Positions 16,254 through 27,138 of a stretch of DNA of 43,782 bases are shown piece after piece. This stretch comes from Chitinophaga pinensis. Its GTDB lineage: Bacteria > Bacteroidota > Bacteroidia > AKYH767-A > OLB10. The stretch spans positions 1 to 43,782 of the forward strand of contig CALQOD010000010.1 of the NCBI GenBank assembly GCA_943332105.1, written 5' to 3'. How positions within the stretch are numbered: the stretch's first letter is position 1; each line of letters starts with the position of its first letter. The translations under genes were made by a program, and so were the position numbers. The notes beneath the pieces were generated by a model. That model was not told the origin of the DNA and did no database searches. It saw only the letters and a program-made list of their open reading frames with translations.

Positions 16254-17663
16254 TTAAAAAGCTGCCCCAACTCTGAAAAACAATCCTGACTCATGTAACT
16301 TATTAAATGTATACTCAAATCTGAAAACTAAATCGTAATAAGTTACATAATCATAACCAATCCCATAAGCATATTGGAATTGGTTGGATAAGTTGTTGTA
16401 TTTGTTATAGTATTTATCTTGAACATATCCCGCATCAGCAAAAAAATTGAAATACATTGCAATTGGTATTTCATTGAACTTTTCTGATTTCAAGACGGAT
16501 GTTTTATAAATACGCTTTTTCATTAATGTATACTTAAATTGCGATTTAAGAAGAAAATAATTTTGTCCATTCAAAACATAAAAATCATATCCTCTTAAAT
16601 AATCTTGTCCATACCCCATAGCCCTTTGATTTGAAAATGGAGCTTTTGATATTTGTGTAAGTCGCGCTTTGACCATCGACGAAAAATTAAAATGATTATT
16701 TAATTTAAAGTATTTCCTGTAACCAGCAGAAATCGCCATTATATTGGGTTCATTTTTTAATAATACGAACCCGCTTTTAATCACATCAAATTCAAAATAG
16801 TCTCCTTTTAAGGCGTAGGTCTGATAATCTCTTTTATCATGCCGATAACCCCAAGAAAATGTTAATGTTTGCTGCGATGTCGAACTATTAACAAAAAAGG
16901 AAGGATTTAAAATCAATACTGAATCGATTGTTCGGTTTTTTCGGTACTCCAGTCCAGTTGTGAAATAATTATAAATTCCTTTTCTCTTTTTAAGTATTAC
17001 ATAACTAGAAAAATCTTTTCTGACATACAAATTTTCGTTTTTATAAAACTGCAATTTGTCGTTGTTAATATCGTATGCTATTTCATGATTTTGCGTCACA
17101 AATAATCCAGCAGACAATCCAATATTTTGCTTTCTGTTTAGGTAAGGAATTGTGTAGCTTAATCCAATTCTATGAGTATAACCATAAATAAACTGCACTT
17201 GTAAAATTTGATCCCTACCTCTAAAGTTTTCTTGACGCAAGTAAAAACCATAATTTGTTCTGCTGATATCTTTTTTTTGTGCCCATTCACTTAGATTCCT
17301 ATCGGCAATTTCAAAAATAGGCATTGGCCATAAATACCATCGTTCCGTTACTTTAATATAAATTAATGTTGAAGTCGAATCTTCACATATGTAGTTTATT
17401 TCAACAAAGTTGAATAAACCTGTGTTCATTAGATTCTCTTTGCACTTAACAATTACGCTATCTAAGTTCTTTATTCTTTCGTTTTTACAAAATGTTAGTT
17501 CTCTGAGTATTATATTCGATTTTGTTTTTTTATTACCAATAATTAGAATTTCCTTTATGAATTTATCTGGATTTTCATTCGGAGTATTAAATGAGTAAGC
17601 AGAATTAGCATTAAAAATAAAAACAAATAGGATAGCAATAAATATTGAAATTTTCGATTTCAC
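16254..17663 (-). CDS. Omp85-family outer-membrane protein with a single POTRA domain
   Basis: A 469-residue protein. The signal peptide (about 1-25) starts at a GTG (17661-17663), MKSKISIFIAILFVF. One POTRA-like domain, about 34-110, shows FIKEILIIGNKKTKSNIILREL, NLMNTGLFNFVEINYI and LIYIKVTERWYLWP. A 16-strand-like barrel follows, including YGQDYLRGYDFYVLNGQNY, whose RGY motif is that of the Omp85 lid loop, and it ends FRVGAAF with Phe last. Known one-POTRA relatives take part in lipid or protein export, but the job of this one is unknown. It lies 9 nt after the CBS gene. Confidence 0.78.
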   Translation of the reverse strand: MKSKISIFIAILFVFIFNANSAYSFNTPNENPDKFIKEILIIGNKKTKSNIILRELTFCKNERIKNLDSVIVKCKENLMNTGLFNFVEINYICEDSTSTLIYIKVTERWYLWPMPIFEIADRNLSEWAQKKDISRTNYGFYLRQENFRGRDQILQVQFIYGYTHRIGLSYTIPYLNRKQNIGLSAGLFVTQNHEIAYDINNDKLQFYKNENLYVRKDFSSYVILKKRKGIYNYFTTGLEYRKNRTIDSVLILNPSFFVNSSTSQQTLTFSWGYRHDKRDYQTYALKGDYFEFDVIKSGFVLLKNEPNIMAISAGYRKYFKLNNHFNFSSMVKARLTQISKAPFSNQRAMGYGQDYLRGYDFYVLNGQNYFLLKSQFKYTLMKKRIYKTSVLKSEKFNEIPIAMYFNFFADAGYVQDKYYNKYNNLSNQFQYAYGIGYDYVTYYDLVFRFEYTFNKLHESGLFFRVGAAF

Positions 17664-22183: not shown

Positions 22184-23371
22184 TTACTGTAATTCTTTTA
22201 TCGCTAAGTAAGCCATTAGTCCTGATCCTGTTTTAAGCGAATCTTCTTCAATATCGAAAGTATTAGTGTGGACACTACTAATAATTCCTTTTGATTCATT
22301 CCTAGTCCCAAGGCGATAAAAACAAGCTGGTACTAATTGAGAGTAGAAAGAGAAGTCTTCTGCTGCCATCCATATGTCTAAGTCCAAAACATTTTCTGAT
22401 CCTAAATAATCAATTGCATTATTTTTTACTTTAGCTGTCAAATCTTCATCGTTAATCAATACAGGATATCCTTTTCTAATTTCGAATTCTAGTTGACCTC
22501 CCATTGATTGCACTAATTGATGAGCCAAATCTAACATCCGCTGATGTGCTTCATTCCTCCATTGCTCATTTAATGTTCGGAATGTACCTTCAATATAAAC
22601 ATCATTAGGAATTACATTTGTTGCGCCATTAGCAATAACTTTCCCAAATGATAATACGCTGGGCATAGTAGGATTAGTAACTCTACTTACTATTTGTTGC
22701 ATAGCCACAATCAGATGTGACGTTATAAGAACGGGGTCGATATTTAAATGAGGCATTGCACCATGACCTCCCTTGCCTTTAACTTTTAAATAGAGCTCAT
22801 CAGTACTTGCCATATAAATTCCACTTCTAAAACCGACTTTCCCAGATGGTATTAGTGGCATAACATGCTGACCAATTACGCTTAAAGGTTTAGGATTTTC
22901 TAATACACCTTCTTTTATCATCAATGAAGCACCTCCAGGTATCTTTTCTTCTCCGGGTTGAAAAATCAATTTTATTGAACCATCAAAATTTTCTTTTAAT
23001 TCGTTTAGAATTGATGCGGCTCCGAGTAGTGATGCAGTGTGTGCGTCATGGCCGCATGCATGCATTACACCGTTGTTTTTCGATTTATAATCAATGTTGT
23101 TTTCCTCTTGAATTGGTAGCGCATCCATATCTGCTCGTAATGCTACTACTTTACCATTATCTTTTTTTCCTTTGATAATTCCTACCAATCCTGTTCCAGC
23201 AACATTATCTTGAAATGTAATTCCCATCTCTTTTAATTTAGCGGCTACAAATTTTGCCGTTTCAAACTCCTGAAATGATAATTCAGGATTCATATGAAGA
23301 TATCTTCTAATCGTAACGACTTCATTATGATTTTGAGTTGCAATTTTTTTAATTAATTCAGGATGTATCAT
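22184..23371 (-). CDS. M20-family amidohydrolase (N-acyl amino acid hydrolase type)
   Basis: A 395-residue dinuclear metal-dependent amidohydrolase of the M20D/HipO type, which removes acyl groups from amino acids or short amino-acid conjugates. The metal-ligand motif MHACGHDAHT (C106, H108, H111), the acidic pair FQPGEEKIPGG (E141, E142), IGQHVMP (H169) and the late AEDFSFY are all present. The dimerisation lid lies about 185-300. No signal peptide is visible, so it is cytosolic. The exact substrate cannot be named; diaminopimelate deacetylase or general aminoacylase are options. It follows the large propeller-barrel gene by 13 nt. Confidence 0.9.
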   Translation of the reverse strand: MIHPELIKKIATQNHNEVVTIRRYLHMNPELSFQEFETAKFVAAKLKEMGITFQDNVAGTGLVGIIKGKKDNGKVVALRADMDALPIQEENNIDYKSKNNGVMHACGHDAHTASLLGAASILNELKENFDGSIKLIFQPGEEKIPGGASLMIKEGVLENPKPLSVIGQHVMPLIPSGKVGFRSGIYMASTDELYLKVKGKGGHGAMPHLNIDPVLITSHLIVAMQQIVSRVTNPTMPSVLSFGKVIANGATNVIPNDVYIEGTFRTLNEQWRNEAHQRMLDLAHQLVQSMGGQLEFEIRKGYPVLINDEDLTAKVKNNAIDYLGSENVLDLDIWMAAEDFSFYSQLVPACFYRLGTRNESKGIISSVHTNTFDIEEDSLKTGSGLMAYLAIKELQ

Positions 23372-23384
23372 GGACGTATTTTTT

Positions 23385-26300
23385 TTAAAAATCTAAACCA
23401 AGTGAGAAATAAAATAAGCGTGGTTGTTTAACTCCATCATCAATACCCCAGGCCCAATCGGCGCGAACAAAATATCCGAGAATTCTTGAACGCAAACCAA
23501 AGCCATAGCCACCAACTAACGGCTCAATATTCTTTGTTACAGTTATGCTAATTGGATTGCCATAATAGTCTGCTTTAAATAAAGAATTATTTTTTGCGTA
23601 CGGCGATGATCCTGTCCAAGCGGTTCCGATATCACCGAATCCAACAATTTGAAAATTCCGGAAGAAATCTGTTCGTATCGGTTTGTGAGTTAAATATTGA
23701 AAAATCGGGAATCTGATTTCACTATTGATTAAGGCAAAGCTATTACCATTTCTAATGTTTTGCGTAAATCCACGAAGGTTAGAAGCTACTGTTTGAAAGG
23801 CATAATTTTGCGAATAATCAATTTGTATATTTTCATTGAAATTATTTACTGGTGAAAAACAATTATCAGTAGAACCTAAATAATAAATCAGTTTGTCATT
23901 TCCGAATGAAGTACTTGCGGCAAATCGATTAGCCCATATAATTTGGCGATGTATTTTTTTATAAAAACGAAAATCCATTCCTAGAACAGTTAAATCAGAT
24001 TTGCTCCTGTCCATTTGATCAAAATACTCTGCAAATAATTTATAACGAAGGCCATTGTACAAATTAAGTCCTGTGCTTATCGTGTTATCATGAATAAATT
24101 CTAATCGCGAGCTTACCCAATTTTCATGTTCATTAGGAGCCAATAAATTTGCAATATCAGTACTAAGGTTAACAATTCGATCATTTCTAAAAGACGCAGA
24201 CCATCTTAATGAACTCAAGTCGTTAAAAGGATAACGAAGAGAATAGCGGATGTTGTGAGTGTTTATTTTGTAATAATTGTAAGTGTATACTTCTTCTCTT
24301 GATTGGCGATAAAAACTCCACTGTTGATCGGTTTGATGTTTTAGATTTTCGTAGCTCAAATAATATTCATTACTATTTAAATTTCCAGAAAGTTTAACTC
24401 CTCCAACTAAACGATAATCATCCATTAAATCATTTAGGCCTACTTTAAATAGTCCATTTAATCCCGGGTCAAAATATACGGCTCCACCAGTAAAAGTTTG
24501 ATACGTTTCATTTATTAATGAATTGTCAAGTTGGGTTAACACATAAGTTGGAGCAAAGGCAATTTCATAATTTCTTTGCTTGGGCATTTGATAAAAAGTA
24601 CTGTCCGCAACCAGGGTTATCGTCGAATCAGAATTCGTTTTCGGGTCAAATGAAAGCTGATTTTTATTATTGGTTGTTTTATTCTTTTTAGGAAAATCAG
24701 TAATGAATGAATTTGATGAATGCAAAGATTTAGAATCAGTAATTGCGATATTTTCTTTTATAGATGGACTAGCATCAATTATTGGATTAACATCTTTTTG
24801 TCTTTCTTTCGGTATATTTTCTTTGTCAAGAAGCTTTCGCTGTGTTGTCTTTTTTATTGTAGTAATATTTCTATTTAATAGTGATGAATTGTCGCTTAAG
24901 AATAAACGAAAATGAGAATTTGCAAAGTCAAGAAAAATATTTTTTGTTTGATTGTTATTTACATCTTGTTTAAGAATATCCTTATTATAATTGCTAATGG
25001 ATAATTGATCCACAATATATTTGTAATGGATACTTGTATCGATAAACGCAATAGTACTATCCAGTTTAGCTAGTTGTCTGTTCCTTATACCAGAATTGTC
25101 ACTGATAAACATAAAATGAGAATTGTCTATCATTAAAGGCTCTGTTTCATTGACCAAGGGAGTGTTAGTTAATTGAATTAGTTTAGGCGAAAAGTTTAAA
25201 CAATCATATAGAAACAAATCCGATGTTTTTGAAGTAAAAATTTCTTCTTTTTGTTTTAAACTAGTTGTTTTTAATGAGTCGTTATAACGAGTAGATTGAA
25301 ATGCGATATATTGATCATTCATAACAAATTTCGCAGCACGATCATCCCATCTGTCATTGGTAATTTGTCTAGTAAATTTAGTGCGAGGATTAAAAATGAA
25401 AATATCCGATTGTCCTTTTTGAACTCCAGCTAAAACAATATCATTACCAGTTGACGAATATGAAAAATCTAACACTTTATCAAAGTAATAAAACTTGCTT
25501 GATGTATGCGCAGTCTTTCTTCCTAACTCGAAATAATCGAGATAATATTTACCTTTTTTCTCATAAATTGAAGTAAGATATTTGCCAGAAGGATGCCAGC
25601 CAATTACGGGGTTTGTTTCGTCAATAATTGTGTTTTCGTGTTTGAATCCACCTTTAAATATTTTCTTTTTTTTATTCTTAATAAAGTCGTAAATAAATAA
25701 TTTATATTTTCCACTAGTATTCTCTACGAAGGCAACAGAATTGCCATCTGGACTGATTTTTAATTGTGTTATATTTTGAGTTTTCTTTTTGAAAACAACA
25801 GTTGGTTTTTGAGCGTTTCTAAGGAAAAGTGAATCATCGTTTTGGTATACCTTAGTATAATAATCTTTCCAGTTGTAATTGAGTTGTTTTAAAGATGAAC
25901 CAATAACATACACGAATCCTCCTTCAATATTTTTATTTACTCGCGACATGTAAATTAAATTGGAAATAGTACTTGGACCGTAGCGCATAACAATAAAATT
26001 CCATAGCGATTGCCCTGCTAGCACACTATTAATGTCGCATAATGCATTGAAATTTTTAGTGTTTTTTTCGTTAATTAAATCCCTTAGTTTGTTATCACTT
26101 TCCAGAGGCCATCCTTTAGCTATATAGTTGATTAAACCTTGTATATACCAATCAGGAAAATTAATTAAAGCAGCGCTTTGAACTCTTTCTTTAATAGATC
26201 CACCGTACAATAACTGGTTTATTAGCACTTGCGATATGCCAGCTCTTAGCTGCTCTTTGAAATGTCTGTAATCTCCATCAAAGTAAACTAGAACTTTATT

Positions 26301-26675
26301 ACCAACAATTTTCGTTAACCCGCCAGTGTTAGTATTTAAGTCTTCCGAGCCCAAGCCAATATTACTTTGTTCAAAATCAGTTAGCTTATTGAAAATAACA
26401 AATTGAAATCGTCCATTTATTTTGTAGTCAAATAACTGTTCAATTTCAGCAATTTCATCATCCGAAACTCTTCCAACATATTGAGCTAGCTCTTGTCCCC
26501 CGAGATAGTAATAGGTGTCAAAGTTTTTAAAGCGATAAAATGTCCAAAGAAAATCGGAATATTGAACCCTGTTTTTACCAAAACTCATTTGATACCCTCT
26601 GCTAAATTGGGCAAAAACATTTGATGGTAGGTTAACCAACAAAATAAGGAATAATATAAAAAAATGCTTTTTCAA
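23385..26675 (-). CDS. Pseudo-peptidase / TolB-like propeller / outer-membrane barrel fusion
   Basis: A 1096-residue envelope protein with signal peptide MKKHFFILFLILLVNLPSN...FAQ. The start is a TTG at 26673-26675, supported by the signal peptide beginning there. Residues about 40-290 resemble peptidase-MA-like gluzincins, but the HExxH site reads A145-G-I-S-Q149 (context EQLRAGISQVL) and the later P-x-W-x-x-E-G-L motif reads PDWYIQGL with Gln179 for Glu, so it should be catalytically dead. Residues about 295-560 hold PD40/TolB-like propeller blades (LKISPDGNSVAFVEN, WHPSGKYLTSIYEKKGK, FNPRTKFTRQITNDRWDD). A Ser/Asn/Lys-rich linker (about 580-700) leads to a surface-antigen barrel (about 715-1096) ending SLGLDF. 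The ligand is unknown. Confidence 0.75.
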   Translation of the reverse strand: MKKHFFILFLILLVNLPSNVFAQFSRGYQMSFGKNRVQYSDFLWTFYRFKNFDTYYYLGGQELAQYVGRVSDDEIAEIEQLFDYKINGRFQFVIFNKLTDFEQSNIGLGSEDLNTNTGGLTKIVGNKVLVYFDGDYRHFKEQLRAGISQVLINQLLYGGSIKERVQSAALINFPDWYIQGLINYIAKGWPLESDNKLRDLINEKNTKNFNALCDINSVLAGQSLWNFIVMRYGPSTISNLIYMSRVNKNIEGGFVYVIGSSLKQLNYNWKDYYTKVYQNDDSLFLRNAQKPTVVFKKKTQNITQLKISPDGNSVAFVENTSGKYKLFIYDFIKNKKKKIFKGGFKHENTIIDETNPVIGWHPSGKYLTSIYEKKGKYYLDYFELGRKTAHTSSKFYYFDKVLDFSYSSTGNDIVLAGVQKGQSDIFIFNPRTKFTRQITNDRWDDRAAKFVMNDQYIAFQSTRYNDSLKTTSLKQKEEIFTSKTSDLFLYDCLNFSPKLIQLTNTPLVNETEPLMIDNSHFMFISDNSGIRNRQLAKLDSTIAFIDTSIHYKYIVDQLSISNYNKDILKQDVNNNQTKNIFLDFANSHFRLFLSDNSSLLNRNITTIKKTTQRKLLDKENIPKERQKDVNPIIDASPSIKENIAITDSKSLHSSNSFITDFPKKNKTTNNKNQLSFDPKTNSDSTITLVADSTFYQMPKQRNYEIAFAPTYVLTQLDNSLINETYQTFTGGAVYFDPGLNGLFKVGLNDLMDDYRLVGGVKLSGNLNSNEYYLSYENLKHQTDQQWSFYRQSREEVYTYNYYKINTHNIRYSLRYPFNDLSSLRWSASFRNDRIVNLSTDIANLLAPNEHENWVSSRLEFIHDNTISTGLNLYNGLRYKLFAEYFDQMDRSKSDLTVLGMDFRFYKKIHRQIIWANRFAASTSFGNDKLIYYLGSTDNCFSPVNNFNENIQIDYSQNYAFQTVASNLRGFTQNIRNGNSFALINSEIRFPIFQYLTHKPIRTDFFRNFQIVGFGDIGTAWTGSSPYAKNNSLFKADYYGNPISITVTKNIEPLVGGYGFGLRSRILGYFVRADWAWGIDDGVKQPRLFYFSLGLDF

Positions 26676-26790: not shown

Positions 26791-27138
26791 ATGAATACAA
26801 ATGATATTGTAAAGCAATCAGAAATAAGTATCAGTGTTGGCTTAAATAACGAAAAGCATCCTGTTAAGATTGAATGGTCTGCGCAAGACTCTGGATTAGA
26901 CGGTAAAAAAGAAGCGAAAGCTCTGATGCTTGCATTTTGGGATAAGATTGAAAAAAGCACCATGCGTATTGACTTATGGACGACTGAAATGTCGGTAGAA
27001 GAAATGCGGTTTTTTGCTTATGAAACACTAAGAAGCATGGCTGACTCCTACGAGCGCGCAACAAGCGATAAAGAACTTTCTAAAGAATTAAGGGCGTTTG
27101 CAAATAAATTTGGGAAAGCTGCAAAAGTGTTAAAGTAA
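26791..27138 (+). CDS. gldC: Gliding motility protein GldC
   Basis: A 115-residue cytosolic protein of the GldC family, needed for full gliding in Flavobacterium, where it improves the function of the lipoprotein GldB. The typical wording is seen: SEISISVGLNNEKHPVKIEW, AKALMLAFWDK, MRIDLWTTEMSVEEMRFF and DSYERATSDKEL. Its stop codon abuts the stop of the convergent engB gene with no base between. gldB is not in the window. Presence of gldC does not prove gliding, since non-motile Bacteroidota also carry it. Confidence 0.9.
   Translation: MNTNDIVKQSEISISVGLNNEKHPVKIEWSAQDSGLDGKKEAKALMLAFWDKIEKSTMRIDLWTTEMSVEEMRFFAYETLRSMADSYERATSDKELSKELRAFANKFGKAAKVLK

What the first reader, a model, noticed from the sequence alone, without database searches (positions are those of the whole stretch)
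23385..26675. Envelope fusion: dead gluzincin-like domain + TolB-like propeller + outer-membrane barrel
One 1096-residue protein combines an apparent peptidase-MA-like domain, a PD40 propeller and a barrel. Aligning EQLRAGISQVL with the usual HExxH segment puts Ala, Gly and Gln where His, Glu and His belong, and the later PxWxxEGL motif has Gln for Glu. The domain should therefore bind rather than cut. A sensor or receptor that reads murein or lipoproteins through the propeller while spanning the outer membrane is an attractive guess.
Basis: partly seen in the sequence, partly recalled or inferred. Interest (0 to 1): 0.55.

Follow-up and report, generated by a model that had tools for sequence, protein, structure and literature searches.

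The report
Outer-membrane Omp85 barrel with fossil protease
A large outer-membrane protein found in most Bacteroidota genomes searched joins a protease-shaped domain that has lost its catalytic residues, a TolB-like propeller and a BamA-like barrel, while distant relatives still have the protease intact, which makes an uncharacterised outer-membrane assembly factor testable.

Summary
On the minus strand, a 1096-residue protein (TTG start, 26675 to 23388) carries a signal peptide, a gluzincin-fold domain, a six-bladed TolB-like propeller and an Omp85 (BamA/TamA-type) barrel; each fold was confirmed by structure prediction and comparison. A tree from the other domains puts the class-wide loss on one branch, with a second loss elsewhere. 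A separate live subfamily persists in 12 of 295 class genomes. Both soluble domains are less conserved than in live relatives of equal barrel divergence, but kept.

The architecture overlaps the uncharacterised 'WD40-Omp85' subfamily of Heinz and Lithgow (2014), for which the parts I read mention no protease domain. In 10 of 24 live genomes the gene follows a TamB/AsmA-like gene and RNase R. The best-supported role is outer-membrane biogenesis, with the dead protease as a client-binding scaffold; the sensor/receptor guess has no evidence of its own. Function is untested.

The parts
23385..26675 (-). Whole gene, 1096 aa, pseudo-gluzincin + TolB-like propeller + Omp85 barrel (stop codon 23385-23387)
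26610..26675 (-). Signal peptide, residues 1-22, TTG start; no lipobox Cys seen
   Evidence: sequence read by eye; not run through a predictor
25806..26609 (-). Inactive gluzincin-fold (Peptidase_MA_2-like) domain, residues 23-290
26229..26243 (-). A145-G146-I147-S148-Q149, in the columns of HExxH
26136..26156 (-). P174-D-W-Y-I-Q179-G180, in the columns of PxWxxEG; Gln replaces the expected third zinc ligand Glu
24891..25817 (-). Six-bladed TolB-like (PD40) propeller, about residues 287-595
24576..24878 (-). Linker, residues 600-700, predicted disordered at 630-692
   Evidence: pLDDT under 50; least conserved part
23388..24569 (-). Omp85 superfamily barrel, about residues 703-1096
23766..23777 (-). 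L967-R968-G969-F970, the Omp85 loop-6 (V)RGF/Y motif
   Evidence: R968 and G969 invariant in 24 divergent homologs; the motif is described in PMC12611786 (passage)
22184..23371 (-). Downstream M20-family peptidase/amidohydrolase gene, 13 bases after the stop, no signal peptide seen by eye; frequent neighbour in the class
26791..27138 (+). GldC-like gene, divergent, upstream; found beside the gene in 19 of 170 loci, all near relatives

Best explanation
This is an outer-membrane biogenesis factor of the Omp85 superfamily in which the usual POTRA domains are replaced by a TolB-like propeller and a gluzincin domain. SHOWN by computation: the three folds, loss of all catalytic and zinc-ligand residues in the window's clade, intact residues in live relatives, one branch that separates the dead class proteins from the live ones, retention of the dead domain across that class. 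INFERRED: that live is the older state; that both soluble domains lie in the periplasm under the barrel, as POTRAs do; that the barrel inserts, tethers or passes envelope material as other Omp85 proteins do; that the propeller docks a partner; that in live relatives the protease trims or destroys misassembled clients, and in the class of the window the domain only holds them, as a pseudoprotease scaffold. Live members may work with the TamB/AsmA-like bridge encoded upstream in some genomes. The nearest working analogy is E. coli BepA, a periplasmic Zn-peptidase involved both in the maturation and in the degradation of LptD.
For: Folds. Live relatives exceed the PF13485 cut-off in 5 of 5 scanned (of 28; 38.7-61.2 bits against 32.4); dead class relatives still match it in 19 of 77 at E up to 10 (best 7.2e-8). 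Catalytic columns: 28 rows H/E/H/E, 136 rows with neither His, 1 row with the first His only, of 165 rows that include duplicates; 0 of 57 class rows and 28 of 29 non-class rows live. Tree on residues 295 onward only: 38 of 38 class dead rows on one side of a branch, SH-aLRT 100, 2 changes of state in all (2 also). Kept in 59 of 61 genomes, own included. Omp85 loop-6 R968-G969 invariant in 24 divergent homologs. Live non-class loci: TamB/AsmA-like gene - RNase R - this gene in 10 of 24 genomes with 9 kb or more upstream; a PF04357 TamB match lies beside it in 6 genomes and is the genome's only one in 5. BepA: start of abstract of PMC8423444 in a search listing.
Against: No function was measured. 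The TamB linkage is absent in 14 of those 24 live genomes and was not seen in class loci (whose upstream flanks were only about 1.5 to 6 kb), where the frequent neighbour is an M20 gene that looks cytosolic (35 of 58 class loci against 0 of 28 non-class). Live genomes also hold other Omp85 proteins (4 to 10 PF01103 matches, this family included, in each of 14 non-class genomes), so it need not be the TAM barrel. Some class genomes lack any match (46 of 295; 39 of the 253 more complete ones), so it is not indispensable for the outer membrane of this class. Propeller and protease domains are less conserved in the dead clade than in live relatives of equal barrel identity, which also fits a waning role.
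Confidence: 0.5

Rival explanations
1. TAM-like lipid conduit: the barrel is the outer-membrane dock of an AsmA/TamB-like bridge and passes lipids, not proteins; protease and propeller only position the bridge.
For: TamB/AsmA-like gene two genes upstream in 10 of 24 live genomes; the adjacent PF04357 match is the genome's only one in 5 genomes.
Against: No such neighbour in 14 of 24 live genomes; in the window's own genome a POTRA-containing Omp85 (TamL candidate) and a TamB lie on other contigs. [quoted passage not shown] johnsoniae.
Confidence: 0.2
2. Sensor or receptor: the dead domain and propeller bind a periplasmic ligand such as murein or a lipoprotein and signal through the outer membrane.
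For: A non-catalytic peptidase-fold cleft and a TolB-like propeller could bind a ligand; TolB binds Pal (PDB titles).
Against: Omp85-type barrel; no signalling domain recognised in the protein; live relatives have intact catalytic residues, which a receptor would not need.
Confidence: 0.12
3. Secretion port: the barrel exports a passenger or its own soluble domain, as proposed for two-partner and patatin-type members.
For: The Omp85/TpsB superfamily includes translocases (PMC4104836, section 10 read).
Against: Among flanking ORFs no family shared by many loci looked like a secreted partner (checked by eye, not exhaustively); the soluble domains precede a linker and the barrel just as POTRAs do.
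Confidence: 0.1
4. The domain is still an enzyme with different ligands or chemistry.
For: New conserved residues in the old site of the dead clade: Q142, R144, G146.
Against: No His or Cys is conserved in 70% or more of 57 class rows in residues 25-291; position 149 varies among Q, R, E and K.
Confidence: 0.03

Closest known systems
WD40-Omp85 subfamily (Heinz and Lithgow 2014, PMC4104836)
   Same: N-terminal TolB-like propeller, no POTRA, Omp85 barrel; likened there to a BamA-BamB fusion
   Different: In the parts read (passages, sections 10 and 13) no protease domain and no live/dead split is mentioned for this subfamily ('peptidase' has 0 hits in the main text). Their sequence lists were not compared.
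'Metallo' Omp85 subfamily of the same paper
   Same: An Omp85 barrel with an enzyme domain, called a metalloprotease there and suggested to serve periplasmic quality control or virulence (section 10)
   Different: Its domain is PF00149, a different Pfam family from PF13485, and no propeller is described; noted as conserved at genus level
Peptidase_MA_2 (PF13485) and M9 collagenase / M1 aminopeptidase gluzincins
   Same: Fold (Z up to 14.8) and, in live relatives, HExxH plus the distal Glu
   Different: All catalytic and zinc residues lost here; fused to propeller and outer-membrane barrel
BamA / TamA / TamL
   Same: Barrel fold, loop-6 RGF motif
   Different: No POTRA; propeller and dead protease instead; no lipobox Cys seen
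TolB
   Same: Six-bladed propeller fold
   Different: Far below the TolB equivalog cut-off; covalently joined to a barrel
BepA (E. coli periplasmic peptidase)
   Same: Zn-peptidase working on a barrel protein (functional analogy for live members)
   Different: Separate soluble protein of family M48 with TPR domain (recalled)
F. johnsoniae BamP (PMC12611786)
   Same: Extra Bacteroidota envelope subunit bound to an Omp85 barrel
   Different: Its folded domains lie beneath BamA and its loop enters BamA's barrel; 'propeller' and 'peptidase' have 0 hits in that paper. Sequences were not compared.

Membership tests
Clan MA gluzincin peptidase (Peptidase_MA_2) | Gluzincin fold | tested here: met
Clan MA gluzincin peptidase (Peptidase_MA_2) | HExxH plus downstream Glu ligand | tested here: not met
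   A145/G146/Q149/Q179; present in 28 of 29 non-class homologs
Clan MA gluzincin peptidase (Peptidase_MA_2) | PF13485 score over cut-off | tested here: not met
   window protein no match; 5 of 5 live relatives scanned are over cut-off
Clan MA gluzincin peptidase (Peptidase_MA_2) | Zinc binding and proteolysis | not testable with these tools
   needs purified protein
Omp85 superfamily | BamA-type barrel (PF01103) | tested here: met
   28.5 bits against 24 on the barrel alone; not listed in the full-length scan; Z 24.7
Omp85 superfamily | Loop-6 (V)RGF/Y motif | tested here: met
   L967-R-G-F970, R968 and G969 invariant in 24
BamA / TamA / TamL | N-terminal POTRA domains | tested here: not met
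   none in Pfam scan up to E 10; N-terminal part folds as gluzincin and propeller
WD40-Omp85 subfamily | TolB-like propeller before an Omp85 barrel, no POTRA | tested here: met
WD40-Omp85 subfamily | Sequence clustering with the members listed in 2014 | not tested
TolB | Six-bladed propeller fold | tested here: met
   Z 22.6
TolB | TolB equivalog score | tested here: not met
   TIGR02800 35.3 bits against 343.15
TAM (TamA/TamL with TamB) | Gene linkage to a TamB-like protein | tested here: inconclusive
   10 of 24 live genomes; not seen in class loci, with short upstream flanks; PMC12045153 passages say that tamL and tamB are not in one operon in Bacteroidota

The most novel reading that the evidence does not exclude
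A further TAM/BAM-like outer-membrane machine of the Bacteroidota: an Omp85 barrel with a built-in quality-control protease and docking propeller, paired with its own TamB/AsmA-like bridge, whose protease was switched off once in the ancestor of one class and kept there as a client-binding pseudoprotease.
Probability: 0.3. Interest if true: 0.78.

Novelty: new variant of a known kind. Interest (0 to 1): 0.56.

Why it matters
The well-studied Omp85 proteins work through POTRA domains and separate soluble partners or proteases. Here a protease- or chaperone-like module and a BamB/TolB-like module are joined to the barrel, in a protein kept by most genomes searched and, in the papers found here, not characterised. 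The clean split into live and dead forms gives a natural experiment: whatever both forms share is the non-proteolytic core function, and whatever only live forms do is what the protease adds. It also gives a concrete candidate partner for TamB/AsmA-like proteins in some non-class Bacteroidota.

Tried and rejected
Rejected: that the gene is BamP of the F. johnsoniae BAM complex (different architecture as described; sequences not compared). Rejected: that no class genome has a live copy. My first count (0 of 57) came from loci gathered with the window protein; a search with a live protease domain and then with a class live copy found a distinct live subfamily in 12 of 295 class genomes, so the statement was narrowed to homologs of the window's clade. 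Considered and left weak: the frequent M20 neighbour as a replacement protease; it has no signal peptide by eye, and in several relatives a membrane protein of about 120 residues lies between. Considered and dropped: that this protein simply replaces TamA/TamL; other Omp85 genes are present. A phage-collection search found no match. Paper searches in which, judged by titles and starts of abstracts, nothing on a protease-propeller-Omp85 protein appeared: 0 papers; only the 2014 paper; 2 papers; 11 papers.

Rows dropped: four loci with truncated or short homologs (L004, L012, L042, L050), two named loci without a frame of 900 codons (L093, L099), the duplicate L001, 18 near-copies, and also L040 and L041 (long branches). 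One named locus (L149) with a short frame and one near-copy (L102) were left out of the structure alignment. The catalytic state of L042, a second, shorter copy in G023, was not read. In one search the catalytic residues of 11 of the 12 live-subfamily genomes were read; G546 was not.
Full report
WHAT IS THERE. The gene lies on the minus strand, 26675 down to 23388 with its stop at 23385-23387, 1096 residues. It starts with TTG; an in-frame stop lies directly upstream, so this is the first possible start, and it includes a signal peptide read by eye. The plus strand read in the given frame is full of stops. On sequence alone the window protein is hard to place: PD40 at 13.3 bits against a cut-off of 20.9, TolB TIGR02800 at 35.3 bits, E 6e-9, far below its equivalog cut-off, no PF13485 match, and PF01103 not listed for the full-length protein but over the cut-off (28.5 against 24) when the barrel is scanned alone.

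FOLDS. An AlphaFold2 model of the whole protein from 77 sequences has mean pLDDT 80.7 and pTM 0.78. Its barrel matches BamA (Foldseek E 3.4e-9; best Z 24.7 with 4.0 A over 316 residues) and its propeller matches TolB (Z 22.6, 2.9 A over 245). Residues 23-292 folded alone (mean pLDDT 79.1) match clostridial collagenase peptidase domains best (5 matches at E under 0.001, all of that kind). On re-alignment the best Z is 14.8 with 3.4 A over 221 residues, and all 50 listed rows are by title gluzincin peptidases: M9 collagenases, lugdulysin (M30), M1-type aminopeptidases and LTA4 hydrolase. The domain is largely helical, for which the tool warns that Z under about 13 may be a common arrangement; here 18 of the 50 rows are at 13.0 or more and no other fold is listed. 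Residues 630-692 of the linker between propeller and barrel are predicted disordered.

IS THE PROTEASE DEAD, AND WAS IT EVER ALIVE? Homologs were taken from 61 genomes (59 match, own included), 296 phylum genomes (195 match, own included; at most two candidates per genome were scored there) and named genome contigs (196 relatives found, the best 80 kept). In the alignments the columns of A145, G146, Q149 and Q179 hold H, E, H and E in 28 rows; 136 rows have neither His; one (L153) has the first His only. These 165 rows include the query twice and some genomes both as handles and as named contigs. Without the named set and the duplicate, 0 of 57 rows from the class and 28 of 29 rows from other classes of the phylum are live. 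The exception, L068, has R-E-L in place of H-E-H, a separate loss. Five live proteins of the 28 were scanned and all five exceed the PF13485 cut-off; 19 of 77 dead class domains still match it at E up to 10, best 7.2e-8. Residues such as W176, G180, P174 and G158 are kept in dead and live alike while the catalytic residues are gone, and no His or Cys is conserved at 70% or more in the class domain, so no substitute metal site is apparent.

ONE LOSS. A tree from residues 295 onward only, so that the active site cannot bias it, needs 2 changes between live and dead (69 rows, 75 rows). The class clade of dead proteins is one side of a branch with SH-aLRT 100 (38 of 38 rows), and L068 is the second change. 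These are quick trees without bootstrap; one search warned of long branches (L040, L041, L068), and one search left out the first two. Polarity is inferred: two of the three deep lineages are live, and the wider peptidase family is defined by the motif (recalled). That the phylum is Bacteroidota rests on the record titles of near-identical loci.

A RESULT AGAINST MY FIRST READING. Searching 295 class genomes with a live protease domain (249 match) brought up in-class proteins of about the same length that DO have HExxH; two read in full have the same order of domains by eye. Searching with one of them separates 12 of 295 genomes (E 9.3e-81 or better) from all other listed matches (E 9.6e-20 or weaker). 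The residues were read in 11 of the 12, and in G097 a live copy (L232) and a dead copy (L077) coexist. In the tree these live copies form their own clade (8 rows). So the class is not free of live copies; the window's lineage, as far as read, is.

CONSTRAINT. At matched barrel identity the protease domain is less conserved in the dead clade than in the live one (barrel 0.3-0.4: 0.330 against 0.495; 0.4-0.5: 0.408 against 0.547; 0.5-0.6: 0.515 against 0.624), and so is the propeller (0.266 against 0.395; 0.352 against 0.440; 0.442 against 0.508) (46 dead and 26 live rows, pairs not independent). Relative to the barrel, both soluble domains are thus less constrained, yet they are kept whole, and the old active-site helix shows new conserved residues (Q142, R144, G146). 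This fits a scaffold better than an enzyme, but does not prove a function.

NEIGHBOURHOOD. In the class, an M20 peptidase gene without visible signal peptide follows on the same strand in 35 of 58 loci with at least 1 kb downstream (48 of 70 in the overlapping named set), against 0 of 28 outside the class; in several loci a small membrane-protein gene lies between. GldC-like and EngB genes are neighbours in 19 of 170 loci. Outside the class, RNase R lies directly upstream in 13 of 29 loci, and before it a TamB/AsmA-like gene of about 1500 codons in 10 of the 24 live genomes for which 9 kb or more upstream was read; the other four live genomes were read over shorter stretches because the contig ends. 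Of three of these neighbours scanned, one is over the TamB (PF04357) cut-off, one over that of DUF748 (AsmA-related, recalled) and one has no match. In five genomes the adjacent gene is the only PF04357 match (G286, G178, G301, G069, G294), and G332 has a second one elsewhere. The non-class genomes also hold other Omp85 proteins, 4 to 10 PF01103 matches in each of 14, this family included, so it is not shown to be the sole TAM barrel.

HOW IT MOST LIKELY WORKS. Shown: folds, loss of catalytic residues, relatives, gene order. Inferred: the soluble domains sit in the periplasm in the place of POTRAs; the barrel acts in outer-membrane biogenesis; live members combine holding and proteolysis of clients, as BepA does for LptD (PMC8423444, start of abstract in the listing), and the class members hold only. 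Confidence in architecture and inactivity is high; confidence in the biogenesis role is about one half.

WHAT IS KNOWN. Heinz and Lithgow (PMC4104836; passages, sections 10 and 13) defined a WD40-Omp85 subfamily by bioinformatics: a TolB-like propeller before an Omp85 barrel, likened to a BamA-BamB fusion. No peptidase domain is mentioned for it in the parts read. The same paper describes another subfamily, 'Metallo', as Omp85-metalloproteases with PF00149 and suggests periplasmic quality control for it; that is a different domain from the one here, but the idea of a protease on an Omp85 barrel is therefore not new. Its supplementary tables were not seen. The F. johnsoniae BAM paper (PMC12611786, passages and outline) and the TamL paper (PMC12045153, passages) do not describe this protein in what was read. 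Searches showed no paper on the combination in the library held here, which lacks most subscription journals.

VERDICT. This is a new variant of a known kind, of moderate interest, with a clear route to tests.

Noticed in passing
L216-L225, L232: A distinct live subfamily of the family (HELVHAFQY-like motif, C-terminus PGW or PVW in the two read in full) in 12 of 295 class genomes, 8 of them from one genome family.
   Followed up: partly
L171-L174, L176, L179, L182, L185, L190, L194: Gene order TamB/AsmA-like (about 1500 codons) - RNase R - live protease-propeller-Omp85 in non-class genomes.
   Followed up: partly
L103, L107, L109, L110, L112-L117 (just downstream of the gene): A conserved membrane protein of about 120 residues, resembling half of a TauE/SafE transporter (recalled), after this gene.
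   Followed up: no
window 16254-17663: 469-residue protein with a sub-cut-off POTRA match (E 0.0012), possibly another short Omp85 protein.
   Followed up: no
L068 (G333): Independent partial loss of the active site (R-E-L for H-E-H, distal Glu kept) outside the class, on a long branch.
   Followed up: partly
L042 (G023): A second, shorter (806 aa) and diverged copy of the family, followed by a further fragment, in a genome that also has the normal gene.
   Followed up: no
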